Shown: positions 10,685 through 61,103 of the stretch, piece after piece
Layout of the letters: every line of letters begins with the position of its first letter
Numbering within the stretch: position 1 is the stretch's first letter
Source: an uncultured Oscillospiraceae bacterium
GTDB taxonomy: Bacteria > Bacillota > Clostridia > Oscillospirales > Oscillospiraceae
NCBI GenBank assembly: GCA_947588955.1
Contig: CANPYX010000003.1
Span: forward strand, 1-64,000
Reading direction: 5' to 3'
DNA: 64,000 nucleotides
Program-made: the position numbers and the translations under genes
The notes under the pieces: generated by a model
Databases searched by the model: none
What the model was told of the DNA's origin: nothing
What the model saw: only the letters and a program-made list of their open reading frames with translations

Positions 10685-10701
10685 GCCGGGTATATCCGGC
10701 T
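10684..10701 (+). terminator. Hairpin after the nucleotidyltransferase gene
   Basis: AGCCGG and CCGGCT pair around GTATAT, overlapping the stop codon. There is no T run, so function as a terminator is uncertain. Confidence 0.35.
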
Positions 10702-10757
10702 CTACATAATTATCCCTCGACCGGCTCAATATTAATGTAAATTTTTCATTTTACCTG

Positions 10758-10786
10758 TTGCGAAACGGGGGAAAATCAAATATAAT
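10758..10786 (+). promoter_or_regulatory. Promoter for the solute-binding lipoprotein and probably asnS
   Basis: TTGCGA and TATAAT are spaced by 17 bases, 56 bases upstream of the lipoprotein start. Confidence 0.6.
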
Positions 10787-10841
10787 GAGATATTGGTTTT
10801 GAATACAGCCATCTTATACATAGCTTGCGGGATATGGATAT

Positions 10842-11600: not shown

Positions 11601-11611
11601 GAGGTAAATTT

Positions 11612-13033
<1,422 letters not shown>

Positions 13034-31477: not shown

Positions 31478-33214
31478 TTATTGGGGCTTGTAGGAAAATT
31501 TGATTTCAAGGCCGTTTTTGAAGAGAATCGCGCTGGTACGGCCGTCTTTTATACAAAAGTTTGTCACGATGCTGTTGAGAAAATCTTTGACAATTTGTGG
31601 GTCTATACGGCGAACAAAATGCTCGTAATTGATATATCGCTTTCCTTCCAGTTGTTGAGCCAATATGAAGTAGCTTGCCTTTGCTATGAACTCCTCGTCA
31701 CTCATGCTGAGAGCGGAGGCGGAGGAGACTGAAAGATATTCGAGCCGGCTGTCAACCTCCTCGATGCGGTCGAGTATTTCCTTTCGCTCTATCAGGTAGT
31801 CCTTATCTGGGATCCCGGCGTCATCGTACAGATATATGGTTTTCAGACGGTTCAGGGCGCGTTCGAGCCGGCGCTTTTCAGAGAGCAGCGTATCTCGTTC
31901 TTGGACCTCGGCGGAAGACTCGGCAGCTTTTACGGTCGCCGGGGTGTATTCAGGATTATCATACTTGCTCTTGAGATGGTTGAATAGTTCTTCAAGCCCA
32001 GGACGCTCTATATGGTCAACACGGGAGAACACTTCGCCACGAAGGAGCTTTTTCTCCAGAGTCTCAATGGATGTGCTTTTGCCGAACGACTTGGAGACTT
32101 TTATGAGATTGTGGATGAAGTTAAAAACGAATGGGCCAAGGGTGATGTCTGAGACATACTTGTTGGGGCAATCGTTGAAGCGGCGGTGTCTGGAGCACAG
32201 ATAGATTGATGGACGCCATCCATCGGCTCGCTCTCTGTCTATGGTCGCTATCATAGGGGAGCCGCAGCAGCCGCAAGTGAGAAGACCGGCGAATATATGG
32301 ATGTGCTTGCGCTGGAATGTCTGTCCGTACTTACCGCGCTGTCTGCTCTTTAGCAGATTAACCACCGCTTGTTGACGCTCTTGTGTAACGATGGCGGGGT
32401 GGTGATTTTCAACAAGCACCCATTCGTTCTGAGGCTTCGTCTCGAATGTGTGTGATTTAGTCTCGTCACGATAGTTATAGCGATAAGTCCCGGAATAAAA
32501 AGGGTTCGTAAGGACGTGATGAACAGCTACCGGGTTCCATGCGCCGCCTTGACTTGCCGGTACGCTCTTTTCGTTCAGTTCCTTGGCTACCTTGAGCAAC
32601 GATCCGGTGGCCTCATATCGGTCATAGATGAACCTGACTACTCGCTCCTCACCTTCGTCTATTGTGAAAGTCTTTGTTTTTTTGTCGTAGTCGTACCCGT
32701 ATGGAATACGGCCACCGTTCCAAACCCCGTCGTTTGCTCTGGAGAGCATTACTGCGCTTACACGCTCAGAAGTCATATTGCGTTCCAGTTCGGCAAATAC
32801 CAGAATGATTTTGAGCATAGCCTCCCCCATTGCTGACGAGGTGTCGAACTGCTCGTTTTTGGAGACGAATATGACGCCCAGCTTTTTCAACTCGGAGTAC
32901 ATAGTCGCAAAGTCCAGAAGATTTCGGCTTATGCGGTCGATTTTCCACACCAGTATATGCGAGAACTCGCCCATGCGGACACGGGACATCATTTGCTGGT
33001 AGTCCGGCCTGTCCGTGTTCTTGGCACTATATCCTGCGTCCTGAAAAATCGCGTAGTCTTTTATGTTAAGGGCATATCTGGCGTAGTTGATGAGCTCGCT
33101 TTGCTGGACGGGCAGACTTGCTTTGTCTACCTGATGGACGGTTGACACACGGATATAGATTGCTACCTTCTGAGGGAGAAAGTCAGCGGCACCGCGTTTT
33201 TGGTTTGAAGCCAT
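31478..33214 (-). CDS. Large serine recombinase (phage integrase)
   Basis: A 578-residue site-specific recombinase. The catalytic domain carries Ser24 in YIRVST, the conserved Gln of LPVQQSEL, and VWKIDRISRN, with the long E-helix after LVFAELERNMTSERV. The Recombinase domain (GRIPYGYDYD to NPFYSGTYRYN) is followed by a zinc-ribbon (CGCCGSPM and a later CSRH...C) and a coiled-coil segment near residues 430-480. It integrates the phage into attB and, with a directionality factor, excises it. Its stop abuts the host boundary, as expected for an integrase at the element end. Confidence 0.94.
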   Translation of the reverse strand: MASNQKRGAADFLPQKVAIYIRVSTVHQVDKASLPVQQSELINYARYALNIKDYAIFQDAGYSAKNTDRPDYQQMMSRVRMGEFSHILVWKIDRISRNLLDFATMYSELKKLGVIFVSKNEQFDTSSAMGEAMLKIILVFAELERNMTSERVSAVMLSRANDGVWNGGRIPYGYDYDKKTKTFTIDEGEERVVRFIYDRYEATGSLLKVAKELNEKSVPASQGGAWNPVAVHHVLTNPFYSGTYRYNYRDETKSHTFETKPQNEWVLVENHHPAIVTQERQQAVVNLLKSRQRGKYGQTFQRKHIHIFAGLLTCGCCGSPMIATIDRERADGWRPSIYLCSRHRRFNDCPNKYVSDITLGPFVFNFIHNLIKVSKSFGKSTSIETLEKKLLRGEVFSRVDHIERPGLEELFNHLKSKYDNPEYTPATVKAAESSAEVQERDTLLSEKRRLERALNRLKTIYLYDDAGIPDKDYLIERKEILDRIEEVDSRLEYLSVSSASALSMSDEEFIAKASYFILAQQLEGKRYINYEHFVRRIDPQIVKDFLNSIVTNFCIKDGRTSAILFKNGLEIKFSYKPQ

Positions 33215-39325: not shown

Positions 39326-39363
39326 AGGCCCAGAAAACTCAAGATGACAGGTAGGTGATAACA

Positions 39364-44111: not shown

Positions 44112-44903
44112 ATGATAGAAACGAAAATAGAGTGGTGCGATTCTACTTGGAATCCGGTAAGCGGGTGTCTCCACACCTGCGAATACTGCTACGCAAGGGC
44201 GATAGCCAACCGCTTCGGCGGGTGCGACGATGCTCCTGACGGCAAGACGAGCCAAAGGATTATCACTCTTACCGAGAGAAAGAAAGTCACCCGCAAGAAC
44301 GGCAAAACCATCAACGCTGCGTACCCGTATGGGTTCACCCCTACCCTCCACGAATACCGGCTTAGTGACCCGCTGAAAAAGGGATTTGGCGAAACGATTT
44401 TCGTCTGCTCCACGGCGGACCTGTTCGGAGAGTGGGTCCCTGATGAGTGGATAGAGCGAGTGTTCGACGCTTGCAAGGATGCCTGGGGGCATAGGTACTT
44501 GTTCCTCACTAAGAATCCGTCGAGATACCTTAAGCTTGCGGAGGCCGGAAAGCTCCCCAAGGGAGATAGCTTCTGGTACGGCTCCACGACGGCCAGCCCT
44601 GAAGACAAGTTCTTCTTCAGTGACAGCTATAACACGTTCGTAAGCGTGGAGCCCATTCTCGCTCCGTTTAAGGAGAGCGACGGAAGCCTCGAAGCTGTCA
44701 AGAAAATAGATTGGGCCATCTTCGGGGCCGAGACGGGAAACCGAAAGAACATCGTGGTTCCCCAAAGAGACTGGATTGAGGACTACGTCCGCCTCATGCA
44801 GGAGGTCGGAAAGCCGGTCTTCATGAAGGAAAGCCTGAGGAAGATATGGGGAGACGGCCAAGGGGCGGACAAGTTCCTTACTCAGACACCGTGGGGAAAA
44901 TAA
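44112..44903 (+). CDS. DUF5131 (phage Gp37/Gp68-like) protein with radical-SAM-type Cys motif
   Basis: A 263-residue protein. The N-terminus WCDSTWNPVSGCLHTCEYCY contains Cx3Cx2C, the iron-sulfur ligand pattern of radical SAM enzymes. Later segments KGFGETIFVCSTADLFGEWV and IFGAETGNR match the DUF5131 family, common in phages and plasmids. Radical SAM chemistry is inferred from the motif; the substrate is unknown, with a nucleotide or nucleic acid plausible from context. Confidence 0.8.
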   Translation: MIETKIEWCDSTWNPVSGCLHTCEYCYARAIANRFGGCDDAPDGKTSQRIITLTERKKVTRKNGKTINAAYPYGFTPTLHEYRLSDPLKKGFGETIFVCSTADLFGEWVPDEWIERVFDACKDAWGHRYLFLTKNPSRYLKLAEAGKLPKGDSFWYGSTTASPEDKFFFSDSYNTFVSVEPILAPFKESDGSLEAVKKIDWAIFGAETGNRKNIVVPQRDWIEDYVRLMQEVGKPVFMKESLRKIWGDGQGADKFLTQTPWGK

Positions 44904-49940: not shown

Positions 49941-50573
49941 ATGGATAAGCACATAGAGATTGTCCAGCGGAGAGTCGGGGACTTAAAGCTCGACTTTGGG
50001 AACCCCCGAAAAATCAAGAAGCAGAAACGAGAGGACCTTGAGGACTCGTTGGAGAACTACGGTGACTTCGACATCATCGTAATCAACGAGAAGAATCAGG
50101 TCATTGGTGGAAACCAGCGTGTCACGATTTTTCAAAAGAAGAATCCTGACATGATCGTTGACTGTAAGATGCTCGTAGGCTATACGATTGCAGAGCAGAA
50201 GTACGTCAACATCAAGCTCAACAGCCACGCCGGAGAGTGGGACCTTGAAGGACTCGGAGACTGGACGGCTGACCTAATGGGAAGCTTCAAGCTCGACCTT
50301 GAAAAGCCTCCCAAGCCGGTTGATGAGCGTAATATCAAAGAGATGGAGCCCATCCACTACGAGCAGTACGACTACGTCCTGATAGCCTGTAGGAACGAGC
50401 TCGACTACAATGACCTCGTCAGAAAGCTCGGCATCGAGGGCGGACAGGTCAAGGTAGCCAAGAGCCGGCACATAAAGGGCAGAGCCATCTGGTACGACCA
50501 GATGAAGGCCCAAATCATAGGGGCTGATGAAGTCCAGGCTCAGGAGAACGGAGGGGAAGGCGATGAAGAGTAA
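49941..50573 (+). CDS. ParB/Srx-fold protein at the head of the sugar cassette
   Basis: A 210-residue protein with the ParB-type core: GNPRKIKKQKREDLEDSLEN, VINEKNQVIGGNQR and a following helix. This is the CTPase/nucleotide-binding fold of ParB, present without the DNA-partitioning HTH. Stand-alone ParB-like proteins often sit in phage DNA-modification and terminase-proximal loci. The ATG at 49941 follows TTTGGAGG; an upstream start at 49860 would overlap the terminator. It overlaps the next gene by 11 bases. Confidence 0.75.
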   Translation: MDKHIEIVQRRVGDLKLDFGNPRKIKKQKREDLEDSLENYGDFDIIVINEKNQVIGGNQRVTIFQKKNPDMIVDCKMLVGYTIAEQKYVNIKLNSHAGEWDLEGLGDWTADLMGSFKLDLEKPPKPVDERNIKEMEPIHYEQYDYVLIACRNELDYNDLVRKLGIEGGQVKVAKSRHIKGRAIWYDQMKAQIIGADEVQAQENGGEGDEE

Positions 50574-51798
50574 GTTCGCTGTCCCTGACGTAGGAAGCAA
50601 TGAAATACGGCTTGTCAGCGAGGCCATCAAGAGCAAATGGCTGACGGCCGGCGATGTAGTCAGACAATTCGAGCGTGGGATCTCGGAGCTTTCTCAGACT
50701 GACAGGGCCGTCGCTCTTGACAGTTGCTATAATTCCATGGAGCTTACTCTTAGGGCTTTAGGCATAGGCCACGGAGACGAGGTTATTACCACTCCATACA
50801 CCTATACGGCAACGGCTGCGGCCATTCACAATGTCGGGGCGAAGATTGTGTTTGTAGACCTCGACGAGAGCGGAGAATCCTTCGAGATGGACTATATGGC
50901 GGTAGCCAGAGCCATCACGGGAAAGACGAAGGCCGTCATTCCTGTTGATATTGGCGGAAAGCTGTGCGACTATGACGCGCTGCGAGGAGCCATCGGCTTT
51001 AAGGCGAACGTTTATCAACCGGCCAATCCATTCCAGGAGGCCATAGGCCGTGTAGCGATTATCGCTGACGCGGCTCACAGCTTTGGAGCTGAGATGTACG
51101 GGAAGATGAGCGGGGAATGGGCAGACTTCACCTGTTTCAGCTTCCACGTCCTCAAGTGCATCACCACGGGGGGTGAGGGCGGTGCGGTAGTCTGGAAAGA
51201 CATCCCCGGCTTCGACAATGATGGGTTCGAGAAAAAGCTTCGCCTTCTTGCCGATAACGGCCAAACGAGCCGAGACAAGACCCGTGGATGGGAGTACGAC
51301 ATAGCCCTCATAGGGCACAACAGCATCATGACAAACCTTGATGCTGCCATGGGCCTCAGCCAGCTTGAGAGGTATTCCAACATCCGTGAGAAGAGAATAG
51401 ATGTTACGCTCACCTATGATAATCTGTTCGAAGAAATAGGCGCGGTGACGAAAAGGGTCCGGCCCCTTATCAAACACTTCGGGCCGAAATACACAACGGC
51501 CATGCACCTGTACCCGGTGCGAGTGAAACATCCTTGCGCCTTTACGCCGGAAGATGAAGAGAAGTTCAGAAACTACATCTACTGGCAGATGGCACACAAT
51601 GGGGTTCCTTGCAACGTCCACTACAAGCCCTTGCCGATGATGACGGCCTACAAAGCTCTTGGGTTTTCCATTAACGATTACCCGAAAGCCTACGAGATGT
51701 ATAGAAGCCTTTTGACGATCCCGTACCACACGGAGCTTACGGCTGATGAGCAGAAGAAAATTGTTTCGATTTTAGGGGAGGCGGTGAGTAGTATATGA
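50563..51798 (+). CDS. DegT/DnrJ/EryC1-family sugar aminotransferase
   Basis: A 411-residue PLP enzyme that aminates keto-sugar nucleotides. It has DSCYNSMELTLRALGIGHGD, IIADAAHSFGAEM with the PLP Asp, and FSFHVLKCITTGGEGG with the Schiff-base Lys. With the 4,6-dehydratase encoded next it would turn a UDP-4-keto-6-deoxy sugar into a 4-amino-4,6-dideoxy sugar, as the PseB/PseC pair does. GGAGGGGAAGG precedes the start. Confidence 0.9.
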   Translation: MKSKFAVPDVGSNEIRLVSEAIKSKWLTAGDVVRQFERGISELSQTDRAVALDSCYNSMELTLRALGIGHGDEVITTPYTYTATAAAIHNVGAKIVFVDLDESGESFEMDYMAVARAITGKTKAVIPVDIGGKLCDYDALRGAIGFKANVYQPANPFQEAIGRVAIIADAAHSFGAEMYGKMSGEWADFTCFSFHVLKCITTGGEGGAVVWKDIPGFDNDGFEKKLRLLADNGQTSRDKTRGWEYDIALIGHNSIMTNLDAAMGLSQLERYSNIREKRIDVTLTYDNLFEEIGAVTKRVRPLIKHFGPKYTTAMHLYPVRVKHPCAFTPEDEEKFRNYIYWQMAHNGVPCNVHYKPLPMMTAYKALGFSINDYPKAYEMYRSLLTIPYHTELTADEQKKIVSILGEAVSSI

Positions 51799-52778
51799 GT
51801 TCCAAACTCACTGGCTCTGTAGTCCTGATTACCGGAGGGACCGGGAGCTTCGGAAATGCTTTCCTCGACGAGTGCATAGCCGAAGGAGCGAGGGAGATCC
51901 GCATTTTCAGCAGAGACGAGAAGAAACAGTACGATATGGCCCAACGCTATCGGGAGCAGCCGAACGTAAAGTTCTTCCTCGGAGACATAAGGGACAAGAA
52001 AAGCCTCGATACAGCCGTATATGGCGTTGACTACGTCTTCCACGCCGCCGCTATGAAACAGGTCCCGTCCTGTGAGCGGTTCCCCATGGAGGCCGTAAAG
52101 ACCAACATCAACGGGAGCGATAACGTTCTCACCACGGCCGTCCAAAAGCACGTCAAAAAGGTCGTGTGCCTCTCCACCGACAAGGCCGTCTACCCTACAT
52201 CTGCCATGGGCTTCACCAAGGCATACATGGAAAAGCTCGCCATGCAGAAAGCGGCAGAGCAGGACAAAACGGAGATTTGCGTCACTCGGTTCGGAAATCT
52301 CATCGCTTCGAGAGGATCCGCCGTCCCCCTCTTTATAGACCAAGTCAAAAACGGGGCCCCGATTACCATTACTGAACCTGATATGACAAGGTTCGTGATG
52401 ACCGTCCAGGACGCCGTAGCCCTTGTCAAGGAAGCGTTTGAGAGCGGCAACAGCGGGGACCTGTTCGTGAAAAAGTCCTATGCTTGCACGACTGGAGATC
52501 TCGCCAGCGCCGTATGCAAGTACATGGGGCTCCCCAGAACCTACCCCACGGTGTATATCGGCATAAGACCGGGCGAGAAAATGCACGAAGCCCTTCTGAC
52601 TGAGGAGGAGGCCACCAATGCGGTTGAGCGCGGCGACTATATCCTCGTTCCGAGAGCAAAGAGCGGCATGAACCCGAAAATCAAGGCCGCCTACAGGTCT
52701 GACCTGTCCAAGAGACTCGGCGAGGACGAGCTCCTTGCCCTCATAAACAGAGTGTTTGAGGAGGGGAGCGGAGTATGA
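51795..52778 (+). CDS. UDP-sugar 4,6-dehydratase (PseB/FlaA1-like)
   Basis: A 327-residue short-chain dehydrogenase: LITGGTGSFGNAF nucleotide loop, FHAAAMKQVPSCE, the active-site run LSTDKAVYPTSAMGFTK with Asp, Lys, Met and Lys positions, and the substrate segment RFGNLIASRGSAVPLF. It dehydrates UDP-GlcNAc, with or without C5 inversion, giving the substrate of the aminotransferase. Four-base overlaps join it to both neighbours. Confidence 0.9.
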   Translation: MSSKLTGSVVLITGGTGSFGNAFLDECIAEGAREIRIFSRDEKKQYDMAQRYREQPNVKFFLGDIRDKKSLDTAVYGVDYVFHAAAMKQVPSCERFPMEAVKTNINGSDNVLTTAVQKHVKKVVCLSTDKAVYPTSAMGFTKAYMEKLAMQKAAEQDKTEICVTRFGNLIASRGSAVPLFIDQVKNGAPITITEPDMTRFVMTVQDAVALVKEAFESGNSGDLFVKKSYACTTGDLASAVCKYMGLPRTYPTVYIGIRPGEKMHEALLTEEEATNAVERGDYILVPRAKSGMNPKIKAAYRSDLSKRLGEDELLALINRVFEEGSGV

Positions 52779-53461
52779 GTAAGCATCTGTTTGTAGTGGC
52801 CCACCCTGACGATGAGGTCCTTGGGGCCGGCGCTTTCATCTACGATGCCGTCAAGCGCGGAGATGAGGTTGCAGTCGTCATGATGAACACCTTTGACTTC
52901 ACCCGGTATATCCGCAAGCCCGAACAGCTCGGACGAGATATGCTCCTGAGCCAGAAAAAGCTCGGCATCTATAAGTGCTACAGGCATTGTCACCCTGACA
53001 GCAACTTCCACAACACCAATCACCGTGAGATGGTGGAGCAAATCGAGTTCGCTATCCGCGACTTTGAGCCGGATAACATTTTCACTCAGTACCCCGGAGA
53101 CATAAACACCGACCACTACTGGACGGCGGCCTCCTGCATGGAGGCATTTCGCCTTTGGCAGCGTGGCCGTGGGGAAGTTCATCCGGTGAGTGGGCTCTAC
53201 CTCATGGAAGTGCAATCATCCACCGATTGGGGGCTCAACCCGTGTGAGAAACGCTTTGAGCCGAACTGGTTCGTTGAGGTGTCAGAAGATGGCGTAAATG
53301 CCATGATAGACTCACTGAAGACGTATGAAAACGTCATACGGCCCGTTCCTCACCCCAGGTCTGAAGAAGCGCTTTGGGCGAGCGTAAGGCTCAGGGGCGC
53401 TCAGTCCGGTTATCCGTTCGCCCAGGCGTTCGACTGCGTTTTCAGGAGAGGGGCGATGTGA
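52775..53461 (+). CDS. PIG-L/LmbE-family deacetylase
   Basis: A 228-residue zinc hydrolase. VVAHPDDEVLGAGAF is the AHPDDE metal motif, and DINTDHYWT supplies the third ligand His. The family removes N-acetyl groups from GlcNAc-containing molecules. In this cassette it probably unmasks an amine on the sugar made by the two preceding enzymes, or on the finished glycoside. Confidence 0.88.
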   Translation: MSKHLFVVAHPDDEVLGAGAFIYDAVKRGDEVAVVMMNTFDFTRYIRKPEQLGRDMLLSQKKLGIYKCYRHCHPDSNFHNTNHREMVEQIEFAIRDFEPDNIFTQYPGDINTDHYWTAASCMEAFRLWQRGRGEVHPVSGLYLMEVQSSTDWGLNPCEKRFEPNWFVEVSEDGVNAMIDSLKTYENVIRPVPHPRSEEALWASVRLRGAQSGYPFAQAFDCVFRRGAM

Positions 53462-54177
53462 TGATACTGACATCACATCAGCCAGACTTCTTGCCGTACA
53501 TGGGCTTCTTCTATAAGGTCCTCCACAGCGATGCCCTTGTAATATCCGATGATGTCCAGTTTTCCAAAAAGGGTATGCACAACTGGAACTACATCAAGAC
53601 GCCTGAAGGGGCGAAAAAGCTCACAATCCCCGTACACGCCCACCACGATACGCCACTCAGGTTCGTAGAAATCTCCGAGTGCCATTACAGTTTGCTATCG
53701 GTCGCAAAGACCTTGGAGCAGAACTACCGGAAAGCTCCACACTTTTCGGAGGGCATGGAGATCGTGGAGATAATCAGGACGTTCGCAAACCTGAACTTCA
53801 AAAAGGACGACACGGTCCCCCTTGCTGTCCTGAACAACCACTTGAACGGGACGATTATGCAGCGTTTCGGTATTCTCCCGAAGCGAGTGAAATTTGCGAG
53901 CGCACTTGGCGTTACCGGGCACAAGGATGAACGCATCTTTCAGATGTGCGAATACATGAAAGCTAACACCTATTTGAGCGGTAGAGGGGCAGCCTCCTAC
54001 CACGACCCGGAGGAGTACAAGAAAAGAGGCATACGGCTCATCTACACAGATTATGAGCCTGTCCAATACGGGCAGCTCCACGGAGAGTTTGTGCCGAACC
54101 TGTCCGTCATAGACTATATTTTCAACTGCGGCTTTGAATTGCCTCAGTCCTGGAGGAGAGACGCATGGAGGACGTGA
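53461..54177 (+). CDS. WbqC-like family protein
   Basis: A 238-residue protein. ILTSHQPDFLPYMGFFYKVL at the start and the central LTIPVH and LGVTGHKDERI segments are the WbqC family pattern. WbqC proteins occur in O-antigen and amino-sugar loci, probably as acyl- or aminoacyl-transferases acting on amino sugars; the reaction is not settled. The start ATG overlaps the preceding stop. Confidence 0.8.
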   Translation: MILTSHQPDFLPYMGFFYKVLHSDALVISDDVQFSKKGMHNWNYIKTPEGAKKLTIPVHAHHDTPLRFVEISECHYSLLSVAKTLEQNYRKAPHFSEGMEIVEIIRTFANLNFKKDDTVPLAVLNNHLNGTIMQRFGILPKRVKFASALGVTGHKDERIFQMCEYMKANTYLSGRGAASYHDPEEYKKRGIRLIYTDYEPVQYGQLHGEFVPNLSVIDYIFNCGFELPQSWRRDAWRT

Positions 54178-54890
54178 CCTTTGGAATATACATTCCGAGC
54201 TACAAGAGAGCGAAGACCTGCACGGCACATAAGTTCCTCCAGTACGGGACCTATGTTGTAAGGCAGAGCGAATACGACGAGTACAGGGAGGCCCTGGCTG
54301 ATTACAGTGACCATATCGAGGTCTGGGGAGTGGAAGACAGCCAGATTTGCGGCTTGACCGAAGTAAACCAATGGCTCGTTGACAACGCCCCGGAGCAGGT
54401 GATAGCCATTCTGGACGACGACATCCACCATTTCTTTTACAGAATGTACGATACGGAGTCCATCGTAGATCCTGAACTCATCACGTCAGAACTTGAGCGT
54501 ATAGGGCAGCTTATGGCCGACCTCGGCATAGGCTTCGGAGCCACTGACGCTACGATCCGGCCGTGGAATTACGACTGCGAGTTCGCTTTCAAGGGCTGCG
54601 CCGGAGCCGTGAGATGGGTAAACCGGGCGACGTTCAAGGCCAAGTGCAACAAGGAACTGGAGTACAACTACGACCTCGACGTGGTGCTTCAGGAACTCCT
54701 GTCCAACCGGATTATTCTCAAACCCAAATACTTCTGCTCGAAGGGCCTCACAGACACTAATGAGGGCGGAGCGTCAGGGAAGAAACGTGGGGATCAGGTA
54801 GCCTGTATCAACCTCATGAAGTCGAAGTGGGGAAAATACTTCTCCTACAACCTGAAGACGAATGTACCTCACATCAACGTCAAGCGGTAG
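54165..54890 (+). CDS. Glycosyltransferase, TAGT-like
   Basis: A 241-residue GT-A-type glycosyltransferase: FGIYIPSYKRAKTC at the start, AILDDDIHHFFYRM with the metal-binding DDD, GFGATDATIRPWN, and YNYDLDVVLQELL. The plan resembles the TET-associated glycosyltransferases of phages, predicted to glycosylate modified DNA bases. No TET/JBP oxygenase or nucleotide hydroxymethylase is in the visible part of the phage, so a protein acceptor stays possible. Last gene of the cassette; 13 bases overlap the WbqC gene. Confidence 0.75.
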   Translation: MEDVTFGIYIPSYKRAKTCTAHKFLQYGTYVVRQSEYDEYREALADYSDHIEVWGVEDSQICGLTEVNQWLVDNAPEQVIAILDDDIHHFFYRMYDTESIVDPELITSELERIGQLMADLGIGFGATDATIRPWNYDCEFAFKGCAGAVRWVNRATFKAKCNKELEYNYDLDVVLQELLSNRIILKPKYFCSKGLTDTNEGGASGKKRGDQVACINLMKSKWGKYFSYNLKTNVPHINVKR

Positions 54891-54952
54891 TTACCGACAC
54901 ATTACACATAATCAGAAAATGATTATTTCTAACAAAATTTTTGAAAAAATCA

Positions 54953-54980
54953 TTGACTTTAAGCCGGTAAGTGTTAAGAT
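54953..54980 (+). promoter_or_regulatory. Phage promoter motif, divergent copy 3
   Basis: TTGACT and TAAGAT are 16 bases apart with GCCGGTAAGTGTT between, matching the two exact copies at 45927 and 47278 in layout. It restarts transcription after the sugar cassette. Confidence 0.55.
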
Positions 54981-55024
54981 ATAGTCAAGCCCAAAAAATA
55001 CAGGGCTGAATATCGGCTGAGAGG

Positions 55025-55972
55025 ATGGTGCATTTGGCTTATGAGATGGTGACGAGGACTGGCCGGAACTTCTACGAAGTGACATCGGCCATGCAAAACG
55101 CCATTCGCAATGGAGACTATGAGGTAGCGGGTTACGCGATGTGGGAACTCCTTCCACAGTACACCCCGTACCTGAGGAAACGTCTTCTCGTTATTTCCGC
55201 TGAGGATTGCTACGGAGTGATAACGAAAGAAATCCTCCACCTCATGGACATCGGGGATGAGGCTGCGCTCACAAGGGCCCTGTCCCTTATCTGCAAAGCG
55301 AAAAAGAACCGGGACGCAGATTATTTCGTCTGTAATCTGATGTACGTCAATTCTCCCACGGGAGCGAACAAAGACGAGCTGAGTAAGGCTCTATACTCAG
55401 CAATCCGAAAGCGCAGAATGGTAGAGTCGGGCCATCTTGCAGCAGAGCTTTTCAAAAAGAACCGAAAGGCTTTCTGGAAGATGCTCACAGAGACGGCCGA
55501 GATGTTCTATCCTCACCTCGTAAGTGAGTTTGCGGCTTTGAGCGAGTCGAACGACAGAATGTCGAAGCCGACGGAGGAAACGATTTTCGTAGCGAAGGCC
55601 ATTGTCCTGATGTGGACGCAGAGAGCGGAAAAGGAACAGCTTCTCTCTTATCCTGGAATGTCATTTGACAAGTTCCTGGATCCGGCAGGCATCGAGATTA
55701 TCAAACCTCTCGAACAATGCCGGAAGATAAGGGGGCTGTTCCCGGAATACCTCTACAACTGGCATACCGCTTACGGCAAGTACACGCTGAGACGGGATGC
55801 GGTCCACGCCATCGAGAATGACCAGAAGCTCCTCACTCCTCTCGAAAAGAACCTGTTCGACGACTGCACATGGAACCGGGACATCAACTTCTGCCTTGAG
55901 AAACACAATCCGAGGCATCGTCCCATTCCATACGACGACGGCAAGAGAGTGGTAACAGATGATGGAACGTAA
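55025..55972 (+). CDS. Phage protein resembling the RarA/clamp-loader C-terminal domain
   Basis: A 315-residue all-helical protein. AIRNGDYEVAGYAMWELL followed by RKRLLVISAEDCYGVI resembles the helical C-terminal domain of RarA/MgsA (GsDpdaAlYwlar...RRlv.iasEDiG), without the AAA ATPase part. It may bind SSB or replication forks. The start is uncertain: GAGAGG touches the ATG at 55025, while a TTG at 55034 has better spacing. Confidence 0.6.
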   Translation: MVHLAYEMVTRTGRNFYEVTSAMQNAIRNGDYEVAGYAMWELLPQYTPYLRKRLLVISAEDCYGVITKEILHLMDIGDEAALTRALSLICKAKKNRDADYFVCNLMYVNSPTGANKDELSKALYSAIRKRRMVESGHLAAELFKKNRKAFWKMLTETAEMFYPHLVSEFAALSESNDRMSKPTEETIFVAKAIVLMWTQRAEKEQLLSYPGMSFDKFLDPAGIEIIKPLEQCRKIRGLFPEYLYNWHTAYGKYTLRRDAVHAIENDQKLLTPLEKNLFDDCTWNRDINFCLEKHNPRHRPIPYDDGKRVVTDDGT

Positions 55973-56192
55973 AAGCGACAGGGTCAGGAGGCTCGTAGCA
56001 GCCGGAGATTTCAAATCGGCGCTCAGGATAGCCAAGGACTTCAAACTTGGGATCTCAGAAGATGACCGAGCTGATATGTGCCGGGGCTATGAATGTCTCA
56101 CAAATCCGAGGCTTTACAAATCCATCGGCTTAGATACCGCCCAAATTGCGCTAAAGGGCGTAGAAACGGTGAAACGCCTATACGGGGTATAA
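55959..56192 (+). CDS. Small hypothetical phage protein (77 residues)
   Basis: Basic helical protein (RRLVAAGDFKSALRIAKDFK) that overlaps the previous stop. This sequence type accompanies the RarA-C-like gene in related phages as far as I can recall. The function is unknown. Confidence 0.6.
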   Translation: MMERKSDRVRRLVAAGDFKSALRIAKDFKLGISEDDRADMCRGYECLTNPRLYKSIGLDTAQIALKGVETVKRLYGV

Positions 56193-56490: not shown

Positions 56491-56569
56491 GCTGGTGTAG
56501 TGTAACGGGAACACGATCCGACGATAAAACGTAGGAGAGTTGGGGGTTCAAATCCTTCCACCAGTGCCA
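56491..56569 (+). tRNA. tRNA-like RNA with abnormal anticodon arm
   Basis: Acceptor GCTGGTG pairs with CACCAGT and is followed by G and an encoded CCA. The D arm (GTGT/ACAC) and T arm (GGGGG TTCAAAT CCTTC) are in place. The anticodon arm is TCCGACG/CGTAGGA with one G-A mismatch and a six-base loop ATAAAA, so no normal seven-base loop with U33 forms and I assign no amino acid. Confidence 0.5.
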
Positions 56570-56922
56570 GCCCCACGACATAGGGCGTGGGGGATTCCCT
56601 GGGAACACCTTCAGAAATGAGGGCAAAAGGTTGCTGGGTCGCTCCCATCCGTTGAAGCCGGACGTATGAGGACAACGATACAGTCGGGACACGACGGAGA
56701 AGCCACGCCGCATAACCGTATGAGTGAGACGGTGGGCCGGCATACCCCAACGGGAGTTCGAGAGCCCGAAAATGTATGCCTATCTCCTCCATCGGCGCAT
56801 GAACCGGTGTAGGGGTGTCATGTGAACTCCTTCTAAGGTCACACGGGGGTAAGGGCCTCGCCTCAAACGTTCCAGGCGAATGAGGTGCCGAGGTGCAATT
56901 CCTCTGAGCCCCCACAAAATAT

Positions 56923-57008
56923 GTGTCAGTAGTTCAGTTGGTAGAACGCCACATGGATTATCAATACCCATTGTGGAAACGTAATTGGTTCGAGTCCTAC
57001 CTGACGCA
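56923..57008 (+). tRNA. tRNA-like RNA with extended anticodon arm and bulged T stem
   Basis: Acceptor GTGTCAG/CTGACGC and a textbook D arm (GTTC AGTTGGTA GAAC) are present. The anticodon arm has CCACA/TGTGG and then TGG/CCA, an eight-pair stem with an 11-base loop. The T stem would be a perfect GTAGG/CCTAC if three bases ATT (56984-56986) were removed. There is no encoded CCA. No amino acid can be assigned. Confidence 0.45.
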
Positions 57009-57077
57009 AATCCTCACGCTCCCGTGTTGACAGTCAAGTTCCTGCTTGGAAATAGCGAGGGCCTGGGGGAAACAAAG

Positions 57078-57286
57078 TGTGCGGTGGCGGAAGATAGACG
57101 CTAAAGTGATGCTTCTTTTAGGTTGGTTGGGGATAGCGCCGCGTAAGCGGGATCGGGTGCTCCGTAAAATGATCCTTGAGTAGGCCGGAATTTATTCTCC
57201 ACCTGAATGGTGCCAAGGCAGAGGGTAATCGTAAGAATAACCTAAAACTCCAACCGTGCATGGGTGCAAGTCCCATGTCCGCACAC
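57078..57286 (+). ncRNA. Split tRNA-like RNA (Leu-type D arm) with 150-base insertion
   Basis: TGTGCGG (57078-57084) and CCGCACA (57279-57285) form a perfect acceptor. The 5' part continues with a Leu/Ser-type D arm (GCG...AGATAGACGC) and the 3' part with a perfect T arm ATGGG TGCAAGT CCCAT. Between them lie about 155 bases with further stems (GGTTGG/CCAACC). I see no group I or group II intron core. It may be a tRNA-shaped domain of the larger RNA. Confidence 0.35.
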
Positions 57287-57293
57287 TTTGTAA

Positions 57294-57351
57294 GCCGACA
57301 TAGGTGTTCCCTTGTGAGAGAGGTGCGCAGGTTCAATTCCTGCGGTCGGCA
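57294..57351 (+). ncRNA. Mini tRNA-like hairpin: acceptor and T arm only
   Basis: GCCGAC/GTCGGC forms an acceptor followed by A, and CGCAGG TTCAATT CCTGCG a perfect T arm. Only about 25 bases replace the D and anticodon arms. This resembles a minihelix or a deleted tRNA. Confidence 0.35.
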
Positions 57352-57654
57352 AAACGTTAATAGAGGCTATGCTTTGCGGAGCATGAGGCTATGAAAACTG
57401 GCCTTGGCAATCTGGGAGATACAGATCGTCGAATGGTATCGAGCAAACCGACGTTAAATAAGTGTGGAGACGGTGAAAACCCGGTGCCGGAGTGACCGGA
57501 TGATGTGAGCGGTTATCAATGCGGCCCTCACAGAGAACGAAAAAGGTGCGCTGAAAACTACGGAGCAGGTCGTCCGGAAGACCTGATTGGCGAAACCTCG
57601 AATGGGAGTAGACGTGTTCCAGTGATAATCTAAGCGAACAACGCATTGATACTT

Positions 57655-57733
57655 GTCAACGTGGCGGAATTGGTAGACGCTGGGGGACTGACGCGCGGCA
57701 GCCCATTTGCTGGTTCAAGTCCAGCCGTTGACA
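57655..57733 (+). tRNA. tRNA-like RNA with Leu-type D arm and abnormal anticodon region
   Basis: Acceptor GTCAACG/CGTTGAC, D arm GCG...CGC with GAATTGGTAGA, and T arm GCTGG TTCAAGT CCAGC are all perfect. Between them TGGG/CCCA and CTG/CAG pair with a GGA bulge and an eight-base loop ACGCGCGG, not a normal anticodon loop. No encoded CCA and no amino acid assigned. Confidence 0.45.
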
Positions 57734-57991
57734 CAAGGGCTTTTCGGTTGAGCAAGCTCCCTACCTGCCTGGGAGCCACGCAAATGCGTGAGAAACCGAC
57801 AGACAACTACTCTTGCCTGACGAGTGCGACCAAGGAAGGGCGGCAGAAGTTCAGGCGGGACACGGACCGGCCCGAAACGGTTACGGCCACACAGCTTTGG
57901 GAACGCTTATGCGTGTGGAGCAGACAAGCGCCAGTTAATCAGACCAAATAACTTGAACTGGCCTGTGGCGGCCCGGAAAGACGGGCAACAC

Positions 57992-58067
57992 GCGCCGATA
58001 ACTCAGTTGGTAGAGTAGCCGCCTTTTAAGCGGCAAGTCACCGGTTCGAGTCCGGTACGGCGCACCA
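57992..58067 (+). tRNA. tRNA-Lys (anticodon UUU)
   Basis: All four arms fold: acceptor GCGCCGA/ACGGCGC (last pair A-A), D arm ACTC/GAGT, anticodon stem GCCGC/GCGGC with loop CTTTTAA, and T arm ACCGG/CCGGT with TTCGAGT. Discriminator A and encoded CCA. Reads AAA and AAG. Confidence 0.95.
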
Positions 58068-58245
58068 TATTATCAAACCACTATAAGGTCAGATAGGGGC
58101 GCGCCTTTAAGGCCAGGGGCGCATACGGCGGTGCGGAGGTAGGAGAAATACCTGAGTCATAATGCAATAGCCAGGGGGGAGACAGGGCCCAAGGGAAAGC
58201 GGGTCCAATCGCCAATGTGGTAAACAGATAGGTTATAAATAGTAC

Positions 58246-58321
58246 GGCGCATTAGACAAGCGGTCAAGTCACCGGGCTTTCAATCCGGTATCGGTGGGTT
58301 CAAATCCCCCATGCGTCACCA
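58246..58321 (+). tRNA. tRNA-Glu (anticodon UUC)
   Basis: Acceptor GGCGCAT/ATGCGTC, D stem GAC/GTC with AAGCGGTCAA, anticodon stem CCGGG/TCCGG with loop CTTTCAA, T arm GTGGG TTCAAAT CCCCC (one mismatch), discriminator A and encoded CCA. Confidence 0.93.
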
Positions 58322-58406
58322 AACCCGTCCACCCGTGTATTTGAATTGTGGGGTGGTTGTCCGTAGAGGGCCAGGGGACGGCTGGGCGTAAAAGGGGTAG
58401 TCCTCC

Positions 58407-58511
58407 GTGGAAGAGTGGTTGACGGGAAACCTGGGGAGTGCAGCGAGGTCCGAATCCTCAAGCTGATCGGTTCGACTCCGGCCAGCGCATGGTGCAAAAC
58501 TCCCCTTCCAC
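58407..58511 (+). ncRNA. Closed structured domain in the RNA block
   Basis: GTGGAAG (58407-58413) pairs with CTTCCAC (58505-58511), enclosing two T-arm-like hairpins: GAGG TCCGAAT CCTC and GATCGG TTCGACT CCGGCC. The closing stem looks like a tRNA acceptor, but the interior is not a tRNA. Confidence 0.35.
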
Positions 58512-58629
58512 GCTAATCCAGCAAATGACCGGCAAATAAGATTCCCCGTGAGCCGCAACGGCTTTGGGGAATATCGGGACGGGAAAAAGTCAGCGCAGCA
58601 AATAAGAACGGATTATCACTCAGGAACAC

Positions 58630-58704
58630 AGGGATATAGCCAAGCGGAAAGGCACGGGATTTTGGCTCCCGCAAACGCTGGTTCAAATCCAGCTATCCCC
58701 GCCA
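58630..58704 (+). tRNA. tRNA-Gln (anticodon UUG)
   Basis: Acceptor AGGGATA/TATCCCC (weak first pair, as is usual for tRNA-Gln), D stem GCC/GGC with AAGCGGAAA, anticodon stem CGGGA/TCCCG with loop TTTTGGC, T arm GCTGG TTCAAAT CCAGC, discriminator G and encoded CCA. Confidence 0.93.
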
Positions 58705-59086: not shown

Positions 59087-59110
59087 ATTTCCAAAAAGTA
59101 GGTGATTTTT

Positions 59111-59668
59111 GTGCCAAGAAACCCGAAACAGGACGCCAATTTGAAGCCCATAAAAAAGGGAGAACTAACCAGTGAGGAAGCAAAGCGACGCGGGAAGAAC
59201 GGCGGGGAGAAATCTGGAGAGGTCCGAAGGGCCAAAAGAGACGCCAGACAATCGGCCAGATACATCCTCGAATTGGCCGCCAAAGGGCAGATTGCGAAGA
59301 ACCTCGACGAGCTCGGCATCCCGAAGAATGAGCAGACCAACATGGCGGCTCTCCACGCAAGGCTTGCGGTCATGGCTCTTGGCGGAAATCTGGAAGCCTA
59401 CAAGACACTGATGAAAATGGCCGGCTACGACCCGGAGGAGAACCGGGAGGAGAGGGAAAGCATCAACTCCGACCGCAGAAAAGATATGGAGTCTGAGGTG
59501 AAAATCAACACGCTCGGTGGTGGAGCACCCGAAGGGGCCAACATTGCGGTCAATATGCAGGACGGCGACGGTTTCAATGATGTCGTGATATATCTCCCGC
59601 CCGTCCAGGACGAAAGTGAATGTGAAGTCCCCACTGAGGACGCAGAAATCGGCGGCGAGGAAAAGTAA
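59111..59668 (+). CDS. terS: Terminase small subunit-like protein
   Basis: A 185-residue protein directly before the large terminase. The N-terminal half is basic and helical (KKGELTSEEAKRRGKNGGEK), followed by YILELAAKGQIAKNLDELGI and a helix (LAVMALGGNLEAYKTLMKMA), the usual order in phage packaging adaptors that bind pac/cos DNA. The tail is acidic. The GTG at 59111 has AGTAGGTG six bases upstream; the GTG at 59102 lies within that site. Confidence 0.75.
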   Translation: MPRNPKQDANLKPIKKGELTSEEAKRRGKNGGEKSGEVRRAKRDARQSARYILELAAKGQIAKNLDELGIPKNEQTNMAALHARLAVMALGGNLEAYKTLMKMAGYDPEENREERESINSDRRKDMESEVKINTLGGGAPEGANIAVNMQDGDGFNDVVIYLPPVQDESECEVPTEDAEIGGEEK

Positions 59669-59705: not shown

Positions 59706-61103
59706 GTGCCGAAGATTATCACTCCTCAGCCCGGACCTCAGACTCAGTTTTTGTCCACGCCGGCGCAGATTTGCATATACGGTGGTGCGGCAGGAGGAGG
59801 CAAGTCATACGGCATCCTCATGTCACCGCTTAGATATAAAAACACGCCCGGTTTTGGGTGTACGATATTCCGACGCAACTTCAATCAGATATTCGCCCAG
59901 GGCGGCCTTTGGGACGAGTCCGAAAAGATTTACCGTGGCATAAACGGAGCGGAGCCAAAGTTCGCAAGGGGCCAGTGGTGGTTCAGAAACAGGAAGGGCG
60001 AAATCGTGTCAAAGGTCACGTTCGCACATATCGAGCGGGATGAGGACGTTCACAAATGGCAAGGCTCCCAGATTTGCGAGATCTGTTTTGATGAGCTCAC
60101 GCATTTCAGCGAAAAGACGTTCTTCTATATGCTGTCTCGTAACCGCTCCACCTGCGGCGTGACACCGTTTGTGAGAGCCACCTGCAACCCGGATGCGGAT
60201 AGCTGGGTAGCAAAGTTCATCGACTGGTGGATAGACCAGGACACGGGCTACCCGATAGCCGAAAGGAGCGGAAAGATCCGGTGGTTCATCCGCCGGGACG
60301 AGACGCTTTATTGGGCGAACACGAAAGAAGAACTTTGGGAAAGGTTCAATCTGGTGACTGACGAGGAGAGAGGCGAGCCCCGGTCGGTCACTTTTATTAT
60401 GTCCAAGCTCTCGGACAACAAGGAGCTTCTGAGGATAAACCCAGGCTATCTTGCCAACCTGAAAGCCCTGTCACTCATTGAACGTGAGCGGCTGCTTTTC
60501 GGCAACTGGAAAATCAAGGCCGGCGCGGGACTGTTTTTCAAACGCACTCAGTTAGGCGACATCCTCAAAACGGTCCCGCAGGACGTTGTCCAATGGGTCA
60601 GGTGTTGGGACCTTGCCGCCACAGAAAAAGACGACAAGGGCAACCCGGCCTACACCGCCGGCGTCCTCATGGGCAAGCGGAAGAACGGCAGATACGTCGT
60701 TGCGGACGTAATCAACAGGCAGATGTCCGCATCCGATGTCCGAAAGCTCATAAAGCTCACGGCTCAGTCAGACAGGGCTGCCTACAAGAGAGTACGCATA
60801 CGGCTCCCGAAAGATCCCGGTCAGGCTGGTAAGGAACAGGCAGAAAGCTACATCAAGTTCCTGTCTGGCTTCGATGTCACGGCTGTTGCAGAAACAGGCA
60901 GCAAAGAGTCGAGGGCAGAACCCATGGCGGCCCAATGGCAAGCCGGCAACTTCGACATCGTCTACGGGCCGTGGAATGAAGAATACCTCAATCAGCTTGA
61001 AAACTTCCCGGAGGGCCAGTTCAAGGATATGGTCGATGCCTCCTCGAACGGCTTTACGGAAATTGAACTGAGGACGCAATTCAATCTGTCCTCCATGATT
61101 TGA
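59706..61103 (+). CDS. terL: Terminase large subunit
   Basis: A 465-residue packaging motor. The ATPase part has Walker A GGAAGGGKS and Walker B EICFDE followed by LTHFSE; the nuclease part starts with RCWDLAATEKD (first catalytic Asp) and has further acidic residues after VVADVINRQ. It pumps DNA into the prohead and cuts it. The start is GTG behind GGGAGGTGAAAAGCT. Confidence 0.94.
   Translation: MPKIITPQPGPQTQFLSTPAQICIYGGAAGGGKSYGILMSPLRYKNTPGFGCTIFRRNFNQIFAQGGLWDESEKIYRGINGAEPKFARGQWWFRNRKGEIVSKVTFAHIERDEDVHKWQGSQICEICFDELTHFSEKTFFYMLSRNRSTCGVTPFVRATCNPDADSWVAKFIDWWIDQDTGYPIAERSGKIRWFIRRDETLYWANTKEELWERFNLVTDEERGEPRSVTFIMSKLSDNKELLRINPGYLANLKALSLIERERLLFGNWKIKAGAGLFFKRTQLGDILKTVPQDVVQWVRCWDLAATEKDDKGNPAYTAGVLMGKRKNGRYVVADVINRQMSASDVRKLIKLTAQSDRAAYKRVRIRLPKDPGQAGKEQAESYIKFLSGFDVTAVAETGSKESRAEPMAAQWQAGNFDIVYGPWNEEYLNQLENFPEGQFKDMVDASSNGFTEIELRTQFNLSSMI

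What the first reader, a model, noticed from the sequence alone, without database searches (positions are those of the whole stretch)
49941..54890. Six-gene phage cassette predicted to make an amino-deoxy sugar and attach it, possibly to DNA
Six overlapping or abutting genes encode a ParB-fold protein, DegT aminotransferase, UDP-sugar 4,6-dehydratase, PIG-L deacetylase, WbqC protein and TAGT-like glycosyltransferase. The PseB/PseC-type pair would give a 4-amino-4,6-dideoxy sugar; PIG-L and WbqC would trim and re-acylate it; the glycosyltransferase would transfer it. ParB-like proteins and TAGT enzymes recur in predicted phage DNA hypermodification loci. A complete sugar pathway inside the phage points to a modification protecting DNA from restriction. 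No base hydroxylase is visible here, so virion protein glycosylation is the main alternative.
Basis: partly seen in the sequence, partly recalled or inferred. Interest (0 to 1): 0.85.

Follow-up and report, generated by a model that had tools for sequence, protein, structure and literature searches.

The report
Swappable phage DNA sugar-coating module
A virus integrated in this bacterial genome carries genes predicted to build an unusual amino sugar and likely to fasten it to the virus's own DNA; a core of three of its genes (a ParB-like protein, a sugar-transfer enzyme and a protein resembling part of the replication protein RarA) recurs in dozens of other phages with different sugar-making genes beside it, so it would be an unrecognised, reconfigurable way for phages to disguise their DNA.

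Summary
In detail: six overlapping genes at 49941-54890 encode a ParB-like protein, DegT aminotransferase, FnlA/PseB-class dehydratase, PIG-L deacetylase, WbqC protein and TAGT-type glycosyltransferase. In related phage loci the ParB-like, glycosyltransferase and RarA-like genes travel together (28/28, 32/33, 38/39, 48/48), usually close to terminase genes, while sugar genes are exchanged: WbqC or an ATP-grasp ligase, never both in 79 groups; other kits use UDP-galactopyranose mutase or a PLP decarboxylase. Cultured Microbacterium phages carry the trio. Rhodobacter phage RcZahn and Vibrio phage KarBoss carry a parallel version with another glycosyltransferase. A thymidylate-synthase-fold enzyme, the usual source of hydroxylated bases, is absent from 44 of 45 viral records (many fragments) and 5 of 5 cultured phages. 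Best reading: DNA glycosylation with an unknown attachment handle; virion-protein glycosylation is the main rival. No chemistry was tested.

The parts
49941..50573 (+). ParB-like protein (210 aa), core gene 1; ParB N-domain fold plus a conserved C-terminal part
   Evidence: phrog_620 E 6e-19; Foldseek to pNOB8-like ParB-N 5k5d E 4e-5, model mean pLDDT 72.9; no Pfam hit for this protein
50563..51798 (+). DegT/DnrJ/EryC1 sugar aminotransferase, accessory (sugar building)
   Evidence: PF01041 E 9e-79; nearest solved 6ewj E 1e-85 versus PseC 2fn6 E 7e-34; SFHVLK motif
51795..52778 (+). UDP-GlcNAc-type 4,6-dehydratase (FnlA/CapE/PseB class), accessory
   Evidence: PF02719 E 2e-97; 4j2o E 2e-98, CapE 3vvb E 4e-95, 2gn4 E 1e-60; FnlA 351.5 bits, PseB 289.5 bits, both under cut-off
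52775..53461 (+). PIG-L/LmbE-type N-deacetylase, accessory
   Evidence: PF02585 E 5e-16, HPDDE motif
53461..54177 (+). WbqC family protein, predicted sugar acylation step, accessory; an ATP-grasp ligase takes its place in relatives
   Evidence: PF08889 E 4e-55; exchange with ATP-grasp; no solved relative
54165..54890 (+). TAGT-type GT-A glycosyltransferase (241 aa), core gene 2
   Evidence: PF20691 E 3e-5, under cut-off; phrog_842 E 8e-11; T2 enzyme by hhalign E 1e-5, probability 82, 76 columns; model pLDDT 87.7, phage TAGT among best viral matches
55028..55972 (+). RarA/MgsA C-terminal-domain-like protein (314 aa) without AAA+ ATPase, core gene 3
   Evidence: profile A3 to 2r9g and 2qw6 E 5e-5, then 8g28, 3bge, 3ctd; hhalign to 10 RarA proteins E 2e-6, probability 89, 102 columns; KellEzio gp78 of the family hits MgsA_C PF12002 over cut-off
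55959..56192 (+). small conserved ORF (77 aa) following the RarA-like gene; role unknown, membership in the unit uncertain
   Evidence: homologue in 29 of the 51 loci found with the glycosyltransferase
59102..59668 (+). probable terminase small subunit (landmark)
   Evidence: position before TerL and blastp conservation in relatives; no Pfam hit
59706..61103 (+). terminase large subunit (landmark)
   Evidence: 50% identity to annotated terminase large subunits of Rhizobium phages

Best explanation
The seven genes at 49941-55972 are likely a phage DNA-glycosylation module: a ParB-like protein and a RarA-C-terminal-like protein are predicted to hold a TAGT-type glycosyltransferase on replicating or about-to-be-packaged phage DNA, where it would transfer a sugar that the four accessory enzymes are predicted to make. 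Shown: the gene content, the motifs, the tight linkage of the three core genes across phages, their frequent place close to terminase genes, and the exchange of accessory sugar genes. Inferred: a dehydratase and an aminotransferase turn UDP-GlcNAc into a 4-amino-4,6-dideoxy sugar, PIG-L removes the 2-N-acetyl group, WbqC puts a new acyl group on a freed amine (the job that an ATP-grasp ligase would do in relatives), and the glycosyltransferase attaches the product to DNA after synthesis, as a shield against restriction or other DNA-targeting defence. Unknown: the chemical handle on the DNA, since no known base-hydroxylating enzyme was found with the module.
For: Core linkage measured from three anchors (locus groups with enough flank): found by glycosyltransferase, ParB-like 28 of 28 and RarA-like 32 of 33 within 4 kb (30 downstream, 2 upstream); found by ParB-like, glycosyltransferase 38 of 39 (the miss, L121, is a ParB-methyltransferase); found by RarA-like, glycosyltransferase 48 of 48 (that scan kept the best 80 of 327 loci). 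The glycosyltransferase is of the family of the T2/T6 DNA enzyme (PMC13216743 passages and section 20), and in T2 and Citrobacter phage NM4.3 that enzyme sits beside the hydroxymethylase. The two other core proteins are relatives of DNA-acting proteins. Of 30 groups with at least 6 kb downstream, 23 have a TerS or TerL recognised by my profiles within 9 kb. Sugar genes swap while the core stays; L026 keeps ParB-DegT-dehydratase-PIG-L-glycosyltransferase but has ATP-grasp where WbqC stands here. A parallel kit with another glycosyltransferase, again with RarA-like, ParB-like and amino-sugar genes, is in RcZahn (terminase two genes past ParB) and KarBoss (terminase not looked for). No hydrophobic stretch in the six proteins (highest 19-residue Kyte-Doolittle mean 1.12). 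The window RarA-like protein has no tblastn match in 72,556 plasmid records.
Against: No base hydroxylase: thymidylate-synthase fold absent in 44 of 45 viral records and 5 of 5 cultured phages, where T2 and NM4.3 controls ring, so the acceptor is unexplained. No biochemical or mass-spectrometry evidence was seen for any member. The window glycosyltransferase is under the Pfam cut-off, as are L061 and L046; Busephilis gp83 has no Pfam hit and only phrog_842 E 5e-4; similarity to the T2 enzyme is remote. Solved-structure matches are ordinary glycan enzymes. Authors of Stenotrophomonas phage DLP3, which has a similar kit, proposed host LPS modification (unconfirmed) and list its WcaG protein in virion mass spectrometry (PMC7326821 passages); in DLP3 and DLP5 the RarA-like match is weak and about 7 kb from the sugar genes. 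In KellEzio the three core kinds are not adjacent. Closeness to terminase also fits a virion protein target, and 7 of 30 groups showed no terminase by my profiles. In L040 the RarA-like gene was not found.
Confidence: 0.58

Rival explanations
1. The cassette glycosylates a virion protein (capsid, portal or tail) during assembly; the ParB-like and RarA-like genes take part in packaging and lie beside it for timing.
For: Location close to terminase genes; a soluble GT-A glycosyltransferase with glycan-enzyme fold matches; no base hydroxylase found; a homologous dehydratase (WcaG) is listed among proteins in DLP3 virion mass spectrometry (PMC7326821 passages).
Against: Does not explain why ParB-like and RarA-like genes accompany the glycosyltransferase in nearly all well-flanked loci; named viral structural matches include TAGT and T-even-type enzymes; the large ORFs in the terminase and portal places fall in different blast clusters in different loci (labelled by position), so no one virion protein partner is constant.
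Confidence: 0.17
2. The cassette alters the host surface (lysogenic conversion or receptor masking) by changing a polysaccharide or teichoic acid.
For: Dehydratase, aminotransferase, WbqC and UDP-galactopyranose mutase families are also those of polysaccharide loci; DLP3 authors suggested LPS modification for their glycosyltransferase (PMC7326821 passages).
Against: No hydrophobic stretch in the six proteins and no flippase or polyprenyl-phosphate transferase among them; position far from the recombinase gene at 31478-33214; the trio is also in cluster EC Microbacterium phages, described as lytic (PMC7302621 passages); ParB-like and RarA-like partners unexplained.
Confidence: 0.08
3. A sub-case of the best explanation: DNA is the target, but the sugar goes on a hydroxymethylated or hydroxylated base supplied by an unrecognised phage or host enzyme, so this is an ordinary DNA hypermodification system with one hidden step. 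Its odds lie within those of the best explanation.
For: Krischvirus SAP DNA carries glucosylated cytosines although such genomes lack recognisable 5hmCMP or 5hodCMP synthases and DNA glucosyltransferases (PMC13390438 passages), so hidden routes exist; many prophage ORFs have no family.
Against: Among the families and blast clusters compared, no further non-structural gene is shared by all loci, so a common hidden enzyme would have to be a core protein or the host's.
Confidence: 0.3
4. The cassette acts on RNA (for example tRNA; a tRNA cluster lies at 56491-58704) or on a small molecule used against defence.
For: tRNA genes lie just downstream in the window.
Against: Core proteins resemble DNA-acting ones. 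The tRNA cluster was not looked for in the related loci, so this is weakly tested.
Confidence: 0.04

Closest known systems
T-even DNA glucosylation (gene 42 hydroxymethylase + alpha/beta-GT or TAGT; T2, T6, NM4.3)
   Same: TAGT-family glycosyltransferase; phage-encoded
   Different: No hydroxymethylase found; own sugar-building genes; ParB-like and RarA-like partners; close to terminase
TET/JBP-associated glycosyltransferase systems (PF20691 namesake)
   Same: Same glycosyltransferase family
   Different: No TET/JBP found in 28 records, but no control rang in that search or
CmoX/CmoY carboxymethylcytosine amidation loci (PMC12783734)
   Same: ParBc proteins occur in many of these DNA-modification contigs; an ATP-dependent ligase adds glycine (passages)
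   Different: PF00145, the family of cytosine-C5 methyltransferases, not found in 20 of 22 viral records searched; glycosyltransferase instead
Mosigvirus arabinosyl-hydroxycytosine clusters (RB69, NP; PMC13390438)
   Same: Phage sugar-modifying gene cluster plus glycosyltransferase (passages)
   Different: Those use a thymidylate-synthase-superfamily 5-hodCMP synthase; not found here
RarA/MgsA
   Same: Similarity over about 100 residues of the region after the AAA+ domain
   Different: AAA+ domain absent; only the C-terminal-type region
Cluster EC Microbacterium phages (Quhwahvirus) gene block
   Same: ParB-like, glycosyltransferase and RarA-like genes in this order
   Different: UDP-glucose dehydrogenase as the sugar gene between them; in the passages read, published only as glycosyltransferase and dehydrogenase genes (PMC7302621, PMC12614000)
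Stenotrophomonas phage DLP3 cluster (PMC7326821)
   Same: PIG-L, WcaG, WecE, methyltransferase, glycosyltransferase and ParBc genes shortly before TerL (passages of its tables)
   Different: Other glycosyltransferase family (RfaB-type); authors suggest LPS modification; RarA-like match weak and not adjacent

Membership tests
TAGT (PF20691) | Pfam score over the gathering cut-off | tested here: inconclusive
   Window protein 24.6 bits, cut-off 27.5; L044 34.8 and Javan291 63.4 bits pass; L061 21.7 and L046 16 do not, Busephilis gp83 none; many of the 120 listed homologues carry PF20691 precomputed
TAGT (PF20691) | GT-A fold with phage TAGT among the nearest structures | tested here: met
   BFVD: two unnamed proteins, then TAGT of phiRSL1 E 1e-12 and others; GT-A enzymes in PDB
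T-even type DNA glucosylation | dCMP hydroxymethylase (thymidylate-synthase superfamily) in the same genome | tested here: not met
   0 of 27 and 1 of 18 viral records, many fragments; the 1 reads as an ordinary thymidylate synthase (phrog_5682, 46-49% identity to phage ones). G000 has one, on another contig. Cultured 0 of 5; T2 and NM4.3 ring
TET/JBP system | TET/JBP dioxygenase | tested here: inconclusive
   0 of 28; 0 of 299 phylum genomes; no control rang
DNA base hypermodification | Modified nucleoside in virion DNA | not testable with these tools
   needs LC-MS
PseB/PseC pseudaminic-type pair | NCBIfam equivalog cut-offs | tested here: not met
   PseC 239.7 of 423.5 bits; PseB 289.5 of 407.75; FnlA 351.5 of 730
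RarA/MgsA | AAA+ ATPase domain | tested here: not met
   314 aa, no Pfam family; similarity only to the region after the AAA+ domain
RarA/MgsA C-terminal domain | profile similarity to RarA proteins | tested here: met
   six of seven PDB hits of profile A3 are AAA-ATPase/RarA chains, E 5e-5 to 0.2; only 3pvs is named RarA there, the rest I take as RarA-type from recall; hhalign E 2e-6; KellEzio member PF12002 36.4 bits over 27. Single sequences of the window and Busephilis find nothing
ParB | ParB N-domain | tested here: met
   by fold and PHROGs; Pfam ParB_N in only 1 of 28 members, E 0.026

The most novel reading that the evidence does not exclude
A widespread, previously unrecognised phage module (ParB-like + RarA-C-like + glycosyltransferase) glycosylates DNA without any prior base hydroxylation: the ParB-fold protein itself installs or exposes the handle, or the glycosyltransferase bonds the sugar directly to a normal base, with the sugar and its acyl or amine decoration exchanged from phage to phage by swapping gene kits.
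Probability: 0.25. Interest if true: 0.92.

Novelty: new variant of a known kind. Interest (0 to 1): 0.74.

Why it matters
The phage DNA glycosylation routes described in the papers seen here start from a base hydroxylated by a thymidylate-synthase relative (PMC13216743, PMC13390438 passages) or, from recall, a TET enzyme. Here a three-gene core recurs without a recognisable one, in contigs titled as Bacillota, Bacteroidota and Treponema MAGs, in Actinomycetota phages and, in a parallel version, in phages of Pseudomonadota, with interchangeable sugar kits. If it modifies DNA, it would be a new route to glycosylated DNA and could give a function to solitary TAGT genes, which PMC13216743 counts in 288 of 753 phage genomes and leaves open. 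Cultured carriers in laboratory hosts make the question testable now.

Tried and rejected
PseB/PseC assignment: rejected as too specific. A hydroxymethylase elsewhere in the prophage: Pfam scans of 20 further ORFs (16 of the window, 4 downstream) showed none; most downstream ORFs of the listing were not scanned by family, only searched as part of G000 for PF00303, PF12851 and PF00145, where the hits lie on other contigs. The one thymidylate synthase near a cassette (L093) is ordinary. tblastn of the window glycosyltransferase in annotated phages: no match; distant members were needed (L044, one weak match; L096, 57 records). The ParB model has low confidence after about residue 110, so only its N-domain match is used. 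hhalign of A2 with the Busephilis ParB-like protein failed internally; PHROGs was used. WbqC: no solved relative and no paper on its function among 12 listed for the word (listing only) or, so acylation is inferred from position and exchange. Iyer 2013 and Pyle 2024 were sought by DOI and are not held; I cite nothing from them. PMC7468147 came up and was seen as a listing only. Recalled, from no call: that Srx and a serine kinase share the ParB fold, that RarA acts at replication forks, that 6ewj is pneumococcal, the roles of motifs.


Full report
What is there. Six + strand genes at 49941-54890 overlap by 1 to 13 bases and encode a ParB-like protein, a DegT aminotransferase, a nucleotide-sugar dehydratase, a PIG-L deacetylase, a WbqC protein and a glycosyltransferase. 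They sit in a prophage that begins near a gene at 31478-33214 that reads as a serine recombinase (by eye, no family search) and runs past the window end; RecT is at 38441, a phage replication-initiation and a DnaC-like gene at 39355 and 40163, terminase large subunit at 59706-61103. Relatives of the host mostly lack the cassette: the glycosyltransferase is in 1 of 60 genomes, the window's own.

The glycosyltransferase. It matches TAGT PF20691 at 24.6 bits (cut-off 27.5) and phrog_842, the T-even beta-glucosyl-HMC-alpha-glucosyltransferase family (E 8e-11). 254 homologues were found (the best 120 listed, many of them with PF20691 precomputed). The alignment of 26 keeps 47 invariant positions; the DDD motif is kept except in one row that reads GDD. 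The T2 protein beside the thymidylate-synthase-family gene is itself PF20691 and aligns by hhalign at E 1e-5, probability 82, over 76 columns. The model (pLDDT 87.7) has as best viral matches two unnamed proteins, then named TAGT proteins, with a T-even-type enzyme at rank 7; in the PDB it finds GT-A enzymes, first chondroitin polymerase and, nearby, a fucosyltransferase.

The sugar genes. The dehydratase is nearest to 4j2o and CapE 3vvb (E 2e-98, 4e-95), then to 2gn4 (1e-60). The aminotransferase is nearest to 6ewj (1e-85), far ahead of PseC-type 2fn6 (7e-34). Neither reaches an NCBIfam equivalog cut-off. A 4-amino-4,6-dideoxy sugar from UDP-GlcNAc is the sensible prediction; the stereochemistry is open. 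PIG-L would free the 2-amine and WbqC would acylate an amine; both steps are inferred.

The related loci. Scans of viral contigs with the glycosyltransferase, the ParB-like protein (63 loci) and the RarA-like protein (best 80 of 327 kept), and one scan of genome contigs (13 loci), gave 183 loci, which fall into 86 groups sharing an exact 120-base word. Groups are related by descent, so counts are not independent events. 79 groups hold the glycosyltransferase. Of the other 7, six have the anchor gene close to a contig end (L075, L088, L141, L143, L157, L164); the seventh, L121, is a ParB-methyltransferase. L164 has one unassigned 244-aa ORF upstream of its RarA-like gene, so it could be a true exception.

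The core. By how the locus was found: found by glycosyltransferase, the ParB-like gene is upstream in 28 of 28 groups with at least 4.6 kb, and the RarA-like gene lies within 4 kb in 32 of 33 with at least 2.5 kb downstream (30 downstream, 2 upstream; miss L040); found by ParB, the glycosyltransferase in 38 of 39 with at least 5 kb; found by the RarA-like gene, the glycosyltransferase in 48 of 48 with at least 2 kb, but the ParB-like gene in only 30 of 39 by my profile. Of those nine misses, two (L126; L127-L129) begin inside the DegT gene, so the ParB place is cut off, and the seven groups L182-L192 carry a diverged ParB-like gene that reaches into the glycosyltransferase frame (tblastn with that of L190; L190's own by PHROGs). 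Over the 79 groups, ParB is in 39 of 39 with at least 6.5 kb upstream and the RarA-like gene on the same strand in 66 of 68 with at least 2.5 kb downstream; in one of the two misses (L120/L123) it is on the other strand between the two.

The RarA-like protein. The window protein has no Pfam hit, and the Busephilis one alone finds nothing relevant in the PDB. The family profile finds AAA-ATPase chains of RarA type as six of its seven PDB hits (2r9g, 2qw6 E 5e-5; 8g28; 3bge; 3ctd; 3pvs, named RarA, E 0.2); hhalign with 10 RarA proteins found by MgsA_C in host relatives gives E 2e-6; and one member, KellEzio gp78, passes the MgsA_C cut-off. The part aligned lies after the AAA+ domain; the ATPase is missing. 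Annotators of Microbacterium phages call it AAA-ATPase.

Swapped kits. Among 39 groups with at least 6.5 kb upstream: DegT+dehydratase+PIG-L+WbqC 9; PIG-L+WbqC 6; PIG-L+WbqC+PglD-type acetyltransferase 6; ATP-grasp+decarboxylase 5; ATP-grasp+UDP-galactopyranose mutase 4; none of these families 3; ATP-grasp+mutase+decarboxylase 2; four single combinations. WbqC is in 33 and ATP-grasp in 20 of 79 groups, never together, 26 with neither, some of these cut short (Fisher p 2.5e-6, inflated by descent). L026 has the window's order with ATP-grasp in the WbqC place. Family names come, on chosen members. So several nucleotide sugars seem to be served to one kind of transferase, and the acyl or amide step would be done by either of two different enzymes.

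Cultured carriers. Each of the three core proteins matches 56 Microbacterium phage records, duplicates included, with the same host tallies (the lists were not compared row by row). In Busephilis genes 82, 83, 85 are ParB-like, glycosyltransferase and RarA-like, with a UDP-glucose dehydrogenase between; terminase genes 1 and 4 follow if the record's ends adjoin, which fits the circular permutation stated for its relatives Merry and Sunny. Genes 83 and 85 were checked by hhalign (E 5e-7, 7e-42), gene 82 by PHROGs. Streptococcus phage Javan291 has ParB-like and TAGT genes just before the terminase genes; no RarA-like gene was found in the part read. A second version uses another glycosyltransferase (group-1/GT4-like: PF00534 passes in KellEzio, is under cut-off in KarBoss). 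Rhodobacter phage RcZahn genes 141-146 are RarA-like, deacetylase, dehydratase, aminotransferase, methyltransferase, glycosyltransferase; gene 147 and then, if the ends adjoin, ParB-like 1, unknown 2 and terminase 3 follow. Vibrio phage KarBoss has homologues of the seven named from RarA-like to ParB-like. The RarA-like and ParB-like matches of these two are weak by my profiles (E 3e-7 to 3e-14, and about 1e-6) but firm to each other. Stenotrophomonas phage DLP3 lists PIG-L, WcaG, WecE, methyltransferase, glycosyltransferase and ParBc before terminase (passages).

The missing hydroxylase. Thymidylate-synthase fold, which covers both hydroxymethyl- and hydroxy-dCMP synthases (PMC13390438 passages): 0 of 27 viral records (of 38 found with the glycosyltransferase) and 1 of 18 (of 36 further ones found with ParB), many of them fragments; Busephilis, Javan291, KarBoss, KellEzio, RcZahn 0 of 5, with the T2 and NM4.3 genes ringing as controls. 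TET/JBP: 0 of 28, but the control never rang. PF00145: 2 of 22 viral records. A published case of glucosylated DNA without a recognisable route exists (Krischvirus SAP).

Judgement. DNA is the better target because the core proteins have DNA-linked relatives, they travel together, and the unit tends to lie at the packaging genes. That T4 alpha-GT may work at the replisome is noted in PMC13216743 and suggests what a RarA-like adaptor could do; this is analogy. Protein glycosylation is not excluded. Paper searches with TAGT, ParB, hypermodification and terminase terms returned none, as far as I read, that describes the trio as a unit; PMC7302621, PMC12614000 and PMC7326821 list some of the genes. 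Only open PMC papers are searched, and of every paper named I saw passages (for PMC13216743 also section 20), not the whole text.

Noticed in passing
window 44112-44900: DUF5131 (PF07505) protein with a CX3CX2C motif like radical-SAM enzymes (motif meaning recalled); no blastp match in the flanks of L011-L024.
   Followed up: partly
window 56491-58704: tRNA cluster between the cassette and the terminase genes, including a tRNA-Tyr with the unusual anticodon ATA and a further tRNA at 56923-57008 seen only by Rfam.
   Followed up: no
L010 about 10616-11818 (contig C3 94616-95818): A 400-aa ORF that reads like a reverse transcriptase beside a large late gene, perhaps a diversity-generating retroelement (by eye, no search).
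   Followed up: no
L009 15404-16540: Prophage protein with an ADP-ribosyltransferase exoenzyme domain, PF03496 E 1e-6.
   Followed up: no
L010 343-992 (contig C3 84343-84992): A short pair of ORFs that looks like a RelE/HigB-type toxin with an HTH antitoxin (by eye, no search).
   Followed up: no
L043, L054, L091, L105, L111: A PLP decarboxylase (PF02784 in L043 and L111) with an ATP-grasp ligase in the related cassettes suggests that an amine or amino acid is ligated as part of the modification.
   Followed up: partly
L220 (Arthrobacter phage KellEzio): RarA-like gp78, group-1 glycosyltransferase gp90 and ParB-like gp92 are in one genome but not all adjacent.
   Followed up: partly
L055 750-1905: ParB-like and PIG-L matches fall in two frames each in this contig; left as they are.
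   Followed up: no
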